From Ecdyonurus torrentis (taxonomy: Eukaryota; Arthropoda; Insecta; Ephemeroptera; Heptageniidae): a stretch of 64,000 bases of DNA. Both the position numbers and the translations under genes were made by a program. This document shows, piece by piece, positions 141 through 3,100 of the stretch (its first letter is position 1; each line of letters opens with the position of its first letter). The notes beneath the pieces are model-generated. The model did not search any database and was not told the DNA's origin. It saw only the letters and a program-made list of their open reading frames with translations. The stretch covers positions 13,169,700 through 13,233,699 of the forward strand of contig OX439131.1 of assembly GCA_949318235.1 (NCBI GenBank), written 5' to 3'.

Positions 141-3100
141 GTGGGTGAAATTAACAAAGTTGGGCCGCTATAGCTGTGCTCACATCTACTTGTTCTGTTG
201 CAGAAAATTATAGGCTAGAAGAAAATTATCAAAACCACCTTTCTAATAAACTTGTGATGGTCAGTAAGGATCGAGACGAGTTCGATTTTTTTTTCAATTT
301 TTGTGAAGAGATTAAATCACTGTTCATTGTGTAATGCATTTTTGATGCTCGCAAGTTATATTCTATATGTTCGCCAGGCAGAAAAAAATTCACTTTGATT
401 ATTATACATATATTATTATGTATATTATTTTTATTATTAATAAACAAGGCATGCTGAATACATTTGTGTGTATAATATTTTGGAACATCTTGAAGTTAAT
501 TTAACTTAAAAAGTTTTGTAAAAAAGAACTATATCATAATATTGTTCTAGAGTAAAGTATATCTTAATTGAAAATAAAATTTATTTAATTTAAAATACAT
601 GAATTTAAATTGTTAAACTGTAAATTAACACCAAGATAATCCATTTTGCTGTCCCATTTTGTGCCATAATTTTACGAGTGTTGGTGGACTGTTGCATTAA
701 TTGTTGTTATGAATGTTATGTATACATAATGGTGTTATAAAGTTTTTTTTATTATTCTTGCTGGTTATTATTGTCATATAACTACTAATATTCGTGTTAT
801 AAAAAAAATGTAAACTTCTTTCAAAAAGAAATATATATTATTTTGGTGGAATATTACATTTTTTTTAATAATTAATTGTTATATATTTGCAATCCACCTG
901 CACGACTGCAAAATTACTTATTTATCTCTCTGCTTTTGTCTTCCTGTCAGAAAACTACCGGCTTGAGACCAAGTATGAGAACCATCTAATCGTCAAAGTA
1001 GCATTGGTTTGTATCTTATTAACTGATACATTCGTTGTTTCGTCTTTTAGTTATTCGTATTTACATCGTGCTTGCTTTTTTTCTTCGCTTATAACCTGCA
1101 TGTGTTGTTTTGTTTTTCTGCTTGTAATGCTTTTGTAATTTTTTTCTTACGCGCAATTTGGGCTTGTTAATAAATTATCTTCACCGCACAATGCAGATAT
1201 TAATTATCAGCTTACAAAGACTTCATGCAAATTAGCAATTATATTAAGTACAAAATATAGTGTGTGTGTGTGACTCTGTATTATATATATATATATATAT
1301 ATATATATATATATATATATATATATATATATATATATATATATATATATATATATATATATATATATATATATATATATATATATATATATATATATAT
1401 ATATATATATATATATGTATATGTATATAATACACATATATAACAGCTTTTATTACACAAAATCCATAAATATATGTCTCAAGTACAAAAAGTAAAATAT
1501 AAAAAATTAAAAAAGCATAAACAATAATTTGTGTTAAAATTAAGATACTGATTTCAAAAAAAATTAATAATTGTGACTTCTTGTACTGCATAAAAGTAAA
1601 TTTCGAAAATTTGGCTTTTTTATTATTATAGAAGTCTTTATAATTGAGTGTGTTAAAATGTTCAAACTTTCTTCGTTGCTTTTTATCTAAAGAGAAGGTG
1701 ATAAAGAAATCAGGCAAAACTATATTTTGAAAACTCGAAAAATTGTTTAAAGACTCTTATATACGACACGCACAGAGATTATTCAGATATGAATAGTATA
1801 TTATATATATATATATATATATATATATATATATATATATATATATATATATATATATATATATACATATATATATATATATATATATATATATATATAT
1901 ATATATATATATATATATATATATATATATACATATATATATATATTATAATATGTACAAAAAAAGTTTGTACAGACAAAAGAAGACAATATTTTTATAT
2001 ACATTATTTAACATAATACAAATGAAATTTTGCAAGCTATTGCAATGCTCTTTATTCATTTTTAAAAATTTTTTATGCATTATTGATTGGTGATTTAAAA
2101 ATAAAGCTTTCTGCAGCCTTGCATTATTTCATGCATCATGTCATATCATAACATATCATTATTATTATTATTATTTTTTGGAATACATTTAATTTATATT
2201 CAAAATGCGTAATCATAATAACTTTCTTTTCTTTTTCTTTTAGTTTCAATTCGTGAATTCGTTCCTGTCACTTTTTTACATCGCCTTCTATCTTCAAGAT
2301 CAAGAGAAGTTGAAAGAGGTTTGTAATTATACAATAAAATATATTGATTTACATTAAGATAAATAACTTCTTTTTTATATCTTACATGACAAGTTTACTA
2401 TACTGTACATTCATAGTAACGCTTATGTAATTAAATATGACATCTATAGAAATAGAGAGACATTACAACTGCAATCACTTCATATACTAATATTTTACAT
2501 TCAATACTCAATAAATAATATAATAATAATAATAACAGTGTTTGAAAATGTAGTGTCTCCCTATTTGTAAATATCACTTTGTAGTTACGTACTTAACTTT
2601 ATAGAAGACTTAAAACTTTAATCTACTCTATATATCTTTGTTTTACTTTACTCCTTGACATAAGTTTGATATGTCAATGTTTTCACAGCAACTCGCGGCG
2701 TTGTTGATTGCTCGCCAAGTAATTGGCAACATCAAAGAATCTGCGTTGCCTTATTGTTTGGAGCAATTACGTCTTGCAAAGCTAAGCTTTGATATGTTTG
2801 GCGCTCTTAGCCCTACTGAGGAGGCTAAGAAAGACGTGGGCGAGGCTAACGAGGGTGACGAGCCTAAGAAATCGTCAAACAACAGACACGTCAGTCAAGC
2901 TGAACTTGAGAGCGCCCTCTTCAAGGTAAACTCAATCGTACGTTAATTGCGGAGCTTTTCAATTTGTTATGATTTAACATTAACAAAACTAAAAAAAAAA
3001 AAAAAAAAAAAAAAAAAAAGTCTTGCGCTTAAATTTACGTTTTCAAAAATTTAAATTCAAGTTAAGTGTTACGTTTAAAATCAATATTTACTTATTATCA

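What the first reader, a model, noticed from the sequence alone, without database searches (positions are those of the whole stretch)
204..1006. Mutually exclusive exon pair in an anoctamin, swapping the TM4-TM5 linker
Two 56-bp exons with the same phases encode [19 protein letters not shown] and [19 protein letters not shown]. Using neither or both would shift the frame, so strict either/or splicing is required. The shared residues are encoded by different synonymous codons, a sign of long conservation. In TMEM16F the matching TM4-TM5 region is the scrambling domain, and TM4-TM5 line the ion/lipid path in the family. Switching a hydrophobic segment (LIVKVAL) for a more polar one (LSNKLVM) could tune conduction, gating or scrambling. 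I know of no report of this exon pair in ANO8, but could not search.
Basis: partly seen in the sequence, partly recalled or inferred. Interest (0 to 1): 0.9.

Follow-up and report, generated by a model that had tools for sequence, protein, structure and literature searches.

The report
Swappable exon pair in mayfly ANO8
A gene for a membrane protein of the anoctamin family, most likely from a mayfly, carries two alternative versions of one small exon that would exchange the inner end of a helix near the protein's lipid and ion path, and some spiders seem to switch the same exon.

Summary
Two 56-bp exons of the same phase lie at 204-259 (2a) and 951-1006 (2b) between shared exons 2-140 and 2244-2318. 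Either keeps the frame open; both or neither gives an early stop. The gene is ANO8/white walker, most likely of a mayfly. 2a is not chance (score 61; next best in the window 26; best of 30 random windows 36) and does not look neutral (P <= 0.0014, own simulation). None of 231 fetched relatives carries 2a. New here: spider protein P0124 differs from three other spiders' by 9 of 19 residues in exactly this exon, with flanks 95-98% identical; no other of 3,393 similar pairs shows this in any gap-free 19-residue window of the 132-residue region compared. Corrections: the TM4-TM5 linker is the same in both exons; all eight differences fall in the first 13 residues of TM5 in a model, outside the shortest ANO6 piece that confers scrambling. 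Splicing and function are not shown; no RNA data were available. Most likely a genuine mutually exclusive pair: a known kind, at a site for which I found no report.

The parts
2..140 (+). Constant upstream exon (3' part; its start lies outside the window or at its edge): region before and through TM4, QEWWD...LNDR; donor GAG|GTGGGT
   Evidence: Translation in frame; donor score 11.8, highest of eight (recalled matrix); aligns to ANO10 and ANO6 before exon 2
204..259 (+). Exon 2a, 56 bp, alternative: (E)[18 protein letters not shown]; donor ATG|GTCAGT
951..1006 (+). Exon 2b, 56 bp, the insect-type version: (E)[18 protein letters not shown]; donor TTG|GTTTGT
   Evidence: same 19 residues in the E. 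danica, Neocloeon and Cloeon proteins
2244..2318 (+). Constant downstream exon: rest of TM5, [25 protein letters not shown]
2689..2925 (+). ANO8 coding exon
3133..3330 (+). ANO8 coding exon
3591..3722 (+). ANO8 coding exon
4187..4377 (+). ANO8 coding exon, end of the anoctamin domain and start of the C-terminal tail
4524..5634 (+). Last coding exon with stop codon TGA at 5632-5634, C-terminal tail

Best explanation
2a and 2b are a tandem-duplicated, mutually exclusive exon pair of the ANO8/white walker gene, most likely of a mayfly. Each transcript that can make full-length protein takes one of the two; transcripts with both or neither shift frame and stop early, so they would be cleared by nonsense-mediated decay (inferred). 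The choice leaves the short TM4-TM5 turn (ENYRLE) unchanged and replaces the first 13 residues of TM5, on the cytoplasmic side. Compared with 2b, 2a is more polar there (T to E and K to N at positions 7-8, I to S and V to N at positions 14-15). If TM5 is a regular helix, positions 7 and 14 point to the same side as the groove residues of ANO10 TM5. The most likely effect is to shift how the TM3-TM5 unit moves or how lipid head groups, ions or partner proteins meet the inner mouth of the groove (inferred). Shown: exons, phases, frames, codon pattern, position in the fold. Inferred: splicing, regulation, effect.
For: Exact exon anatomy; the only duplicated exon among those tried; far above chance; dN 0.31 with saturated dS; a 2a free of constraint matches the data in at most 0.14% of 20,000 trials at each of eight divergences, stops allowed or not; 2a keeps the three positions of this stretch that are invariant in a 40-protein alignment (E415, L427, K430 in E. 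danica numbering) and five of the six nearly invariant ones; splice signals at both; a separate sign of switching at the same exon in spiders; the model puts the exon at loop 415-420 plus TM5 421-433, with TMEM16K as best fold match.
Against: No RNA evidence. None of 231 fetched relatives carries 2a, and some insect clusters have a single member (Ischnura, Hetaerina, Anabrus, E. danica), so no second isoform is on record there. The sixth nearly invariant position, I428, is Ser in 2a; it is I or V in all 43 distinct segments of 200 proteins and I, V or M in the 31 further ones. The 2b donor is weak by a recalled matrix (74th percentile of GT sites). No base-pairing signal stood out among five intron stretches. 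Under a weaker condition the neutral simulation allows up to 4.4%, and its mutation model is my own.
Confidence: 0.78

Rival explanations
1. 2a is a regulatory (poison or unproductive) exon: it is mainly spliced together with 2b, giving a frameshift, and sets the level of ANO8 rather than making a second protein.
For: Including both gives a stop at codon 78. None of the 231 fetched proteins carries 2a.
Against: A poison exon needs no protein-level constraint, yet 2a keeps the reading frame, the invariant residues and a codon pattern of purifying selection.
Confidence: 0.1
2. 2a is a dying copy of an old duplicate, no longer used.
For: Not seen in any of 231 fetched relatives; Ser at a position that is otherwise I, V or M.
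Against: Open frame, AG acceptor in place, donor at the 97th percentile of GT sites in the window (recalled matrix); simulation P <= 0.0014.
Confidence: 0.08
3. Both exons work, but the pair arose within mayflies; its resemblance to crustacean and mollusc residues is convergence. (A rival to the old-origin reading, compatible with the best explanation; its odds do not add up with the others.)
For: The Odonata and Neoptera proteins in the set are 2b-like. KH and SH tests do not exclude it (p 0.09-0.19).
Against: Placing 2a within mayflies costs 5.5-6.3 log-likelihood units against the best placement (AU p 0.03-0.10); synonymous sites are saturated.
Confidence: 0.4
4. Assembly artefact, such as a merged haplotype or paralogue.
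For: The rest of the genome could not be searched (and eleven later ones, all unanswered).
Against: The copies differ at 24 of 56 bases, lie in one stretch between shared exons, and none of the six neighbouring exons tried is duplicated in the window.
Confidence: 0.02

Closest known systems
Homologous mutually exclusive exons of ion-channel genes, such as slo1 and CaV1.2 exons 8/8a (only titles seen, in the reference lists of PMC7954323 and PMC12592175; details recalled)
   Same: Homologous either/or exons that exchange a short piece of a channel protein
   Different: Different protein family; use and effect are reported there and only inferred here
Splice variants of TMEM16A, B and F (PMC8835819, 12 of 20 passages shown)
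   Same: Alternative splicing within the anoctamin family
   Different: The passages shown describe optional segments and alternative starts, mostly in the N-terminus and first intracellular loop; no homologous either/or pair in TM5 is mentioned in them
Scrambling domain of ANO6/TMEM16F, residues 525-559 (PMC4477620, passages)
   Same: Exon 2 aligns without gaps to 539-557
   Different: The exon lies mostly outside the minimal 525-540 piece; scrambling by ANO8 is not established

Membership tests
ANO8 / white walker subfamily of anoctamins | Anoctamin (PF04547) domain | tested here: met
   E 2e-95, residues 15-306 of a 317-residue translated part
ANO8 / white walker subfamily of anoctamins | Closest relatives are ANO8 orthologues | tested here: met
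   Named best matches are mostly anoctamin-8 or white walker; some source names say anoctamin-10. 82% identity over 698 residues to the E. danica protein. No tree with other anoctamin paralogues was built.
ANO8 / white walker subfamily of anoctamins | ER-plasma membrane tethering | not testable with these tools
   Literature statement only (PMC9904763, PMC7312528, passages)
Mutually exclusive homologous exons | Adjacent, homologous, same length and phase | tested here: met
   56 bp each, same phase, 11 of 19 residues
Mutually exclusive homologous exons | Both or neither disrupts the frame | tested here: met
   Stops at codons 78 and 106
Mutually exclusive homologous exons | Exactly one included in mature mRNA | not testable with these tools
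   No RNA data
Dscam-type control by competing RNA pairing | Competing base pairing between introns | tested here: inconclusive
   No duplex clearly beyond shuffled controls among ten pairs of five intron stretches. One sequence only, AT-rich, base composition alone kept in the shuffles, and the AT-repeat parts of the third intron left out.
Scrambling-domain swap | Contains the piece sufficient for scrambling (525-540 in ANO6) | tested here: not met
   Exon 2 = 539-557 by alignment; residues 539-540 are the same in 2a and 2b

The most novel reading that the evidence does not exclude
The exon switch at the inner end of TM5 is an ancient arthropod feature of ANO8, present before chelicerates and insects parted, kept in mayflies and spiders, and used to give one gene two gating or lipid-handling modes. 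In insects the present main exon 2b would be the derived copy, and 2a the one that kept the older, crustacean- and mollusc-like residues.
Probability: 0.2. Interest if true: 0.75.

Novelty: new member of a known kind. Interest (0 to 1): 0.55.

Why it matters
If both isoforms are made, nature offers a matched pair of anoctamins that differ by only eight residues at the start of TM5, on the inner side of the lipid and ion path. That is a clean test of what this stretch does in ANO8, whose transport activity is unsettled. If the spider sign is confirmed in DNA, the same exon is switched either by independent events or over a very long time, which would mark it as a functional hot spot of the family.

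Tried and rejected
RNA pairing between introns: ten pairs of five stretches, best duplex -26.5 kcal/mol; nine of ten lie inside the range of ten shuffles each or are weaker, and one (141-203 with 1960-2243) is 0.1 kcal/mol stronger than it; only one partner was shuffled, keeping base composition alone. Own-genome search for other anoctamins, the N-terminus and haplotypes: not completed. Search for 2a elsewhere by a 40-residue query centred on it: 55 proteins, all listed, none with 2a. Searches found 334 and 583 proteins, of which only the best 120 each were listed. Members hidden inside 90% clusters cannot be read, so a 2a isoform in Neocloeon (2 members) or Cloeon (5 members) is not excluded. 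Old paralogy as the cause of the spider difference: whole-protein identity P0123/P0124 is 82%, as for P0121/P0123 (81%), so this is unlikely. Age of the pair: 37 rows (35 of the 231 proteins, chosen by me, plus 2a and 2b) on a species tree that I recalled; leans to an old origin, does not settle it. Literature: see the last paragraph of the report; a tenth search failed.

Full report
What is there. At window 204-259 and 951-1006 lie two 56-bp exons between a constant upstream exon (2-140) and a constant downstream exon (2244-2318). Both have AG before and GT after, both start in the same phase, and either one joins the constant exons in an open frame that runs through five more exons to a stop at 5632-5634. 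Joining neither gives a stop at codon 106, joining both at codon 78, counted from base 2.

Not chance. Scored against 2b with BLOSUM62, the 2a site has 61; the next best 19-residue stretch in all six frames of the window has 26, and the best of 30 random windows (first-order Markov) has 36. Of the eight exon queries that I tried for this gene (not the last coding exon), only 2a and 2b have a partner elsewhere in the window.

Selection. The two exons differ at 24 of 56 bases; 11 of 19 residues agree and 7 of these 11 use another codon. Differences by codon position are 7, 4 and 13. dN is 0.31 and synonymous sites are saturated. I simulated a pair in which 2b changes only silently and 2a drifts freely, at eight divergences, with or without stops allowed, 20,000 trials each. 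At most 0.14% of trials at any divergence kept 11 residues and an open frame at 24 or more base differences. Under a weaker condition (11 residues kept, at least 7 silently changed codons) the largest share was 4.4% where stops are forbidden and 2.0% where they are not. So 2a has most likely been under protein-level constraint.

The gene. The translated part matches Pfam Anoctamin (E 2e-95). The named best relatives are mostly anoctamin-8/white walker of insects, with the mayfly Ephemera danica first (it is sixth in the narrower 40-residue search). Over the C-terminal part, among 12 proteins compared, E. danica has 82% identity over 698 residues, two other mayflies 72-73% over 676-686, two damselflies 67%, and a stick insect 73% over a shorter 601. 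The window is therefore most likely from a mayfly; its genome could not be searched. In Drosophila, white walker is an ANO8 required for the cold response of class III sensory neurons of larvae (PMC9904763, passages).

Place in the protein. Exon 2 aligns without gaps to human ANO10 388-406 and mouse TMEM16F 539-557. An AlphaFold2 model of the E. danica protein (mean pLDDT 62.8, pTM 0.60; best fold matches TMEM16K) has TM4 ending at 414, a loop at 415-420 (418-421 below pLDDT 50) and TM5 at 421-450. Exon 2 is residues 415-433. So exon 2 begins where TM4 ends, the loop ENYRLE is the same in 2a and 2b, and all eight differences fall in 421-433, the first 13 residues of TM5. By a recalled 100-degree helix rule, positions 7, 10, 14 and 18 of the exon point within 60 degrees of ANO10 Cys412, one of the groove-facing residues named in PMC6718402 (passages). 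2a is less hydrophobic over these 13 residues (Kyte-Doolittle sum -13.0 against 2.3). In TMEM16F the residue at position 14 is Thr552, so the Ser of 2a is not foreign to the wider family, although no ANO8 protein in the set has it.

Relation to the scrambling domain. Yu and colleagues (PMC4477620, passages) define ANO6 525-559 as the scrambling domain; the shortest chimera that scrambled carried ANO6 525-540, and triplet mutations between 525 and 535 abolished scrambling. These lie in the constant upstream exon, save 539-540, which do not differ between 2a and 2b. Chimeras that replace ANO6 N525-Q559 or N541-T662 did not scramble; both include the exon 2 region but neither isolates it. For ANO8 itself, plasma-membrane-targeted TMEM16H gave increased ATP-induced iodide permeability but no ionomycin-induced whole-cell current, though the abstract groups it with paralogues that 'produce Ca2+-dependent ion channels' (PMC7312528, abstract and passages).

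Relatives. Three protein searches gave 231 proteins to read; two of the searches listed only their best 120 of 334 and 583. None of the 231 carries 2a; the nearest segments are those of two freshwater mussels (15 of 19 to 2a, 12 of 19 to 2b). I compared pairs over a 132-residue region around the exon: 26,560 of 26,565 passed a coverage filter. Of 3,393 pairs with flanks at least 90% identical, three have nine or more differences in a gap-free 19-residue window, and these windows start at the exon or one residue beside it: the spider protein P0124 (Oedothorax gibbosus) against P0121, P0122 and P0123. P0124 is about as similar to the other spiders over its whole length (79-82%) as they are to P0123 (81-82%); the loops and tails outside the region also differ among all of them. 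The simplest reading is that spiders also have two versions of this exon, and that different ones were annotated. I have not seen spider DNA, and all three pairs rest on the single protein P0124.

Age. At positions 7, 17 and 18, 2a has E, L and V, the usual states of the molluscs and in part of the crustaceans and chelicerates, while 2b has T, V and A, the commonest states among the insects (flies have S at 7, moths I at 17). Q at position 10 occurs in 2a, in the decapod and krill proteins, and in human ANO10. Placing 2a beside 2b or beside the mayflies is 5.5-6.3 log units worse than the best placement (AU p 0.03-0.10; KH 0.09-0.12; SH 0.15-0.19), and beside all insects 2.5-2.7 worse (AU p 0.05-0.06); placements outside insects are not distinguishable. 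With 19 sites and a recalled tree this is a hint of age, not proof. Against it, no dragonfly or neopteran protein in the set carries such a segment.

Splicing control. The 2b donor (TTG|GTTTGT) is the weakest of eight and the 2a donor (ATG|GTCAGT) the third strongest (recalled matrix). The intron before 2a is 63 bases. This suggests that 2b, the type seen in the insect proteins of the set, needs help or repression of 2a (inference). All sites are GT-AG, and 691 bases separate the exons, so simple crowding is an unlikely cause of exclusion (inference). No long-range pairing stood out. Loss of frame is the one exclusion mechanism that the sequence itself shows.

Novelty. Nine answered searches of open-licence PMC papers listed no title or abstract opening that reports a mutually exclusive exon in ANO8. 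Those that paired an anoctamin term with mutually exclusive exons are no paper; 14 papers; 5; 2; of these hits I opened only PMC12592175 (passages: its one mention is a CaV1.2 reference). I also saw passages of PMC8835819, PMC7954323 and PMC9904763, without such a report. Supplementary tables, such as lists of Drosophila exon pairs, could not be searched. Either/or homologous exons are a well-known kind; for an anoctamin with one at TM5 I found no report.

Noticed in passing
window 9875-11356, - strand: A long open frame (492 aa read, 9875-11353) encodes a class A G-protein-coupled receptor (Pfam 7tm_1 E 4e-43); nearest solved structures include somatostatin type 5 and cholecystokinin A receptors.
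   Followed up: partly
P0121-P0124 (spider ANO8 proteins): Oedothorax gibbosus has EHYRLEDSFENHLIVKLVL where three other spiders have ENYRGEE(E/Q)YENHLVAKELL, with 95-98% identical flanks: probable exon switch in spiders.
   Followed up: partly
P0214, P0227, P0228 (two shrimps and an unnamed source): Besides the common decapod ANO8, a more divergent ANO8-like protein exists in shrimps (Halocaridina rubra has both types, P0205 and P0214): possible second copy in crustaceans.
   Followed up: no
window 1281-1420 and 1801-1950, + strand: Two long (AT)n runs in the intron between exon 2b and the next exon.
   Followed up: no
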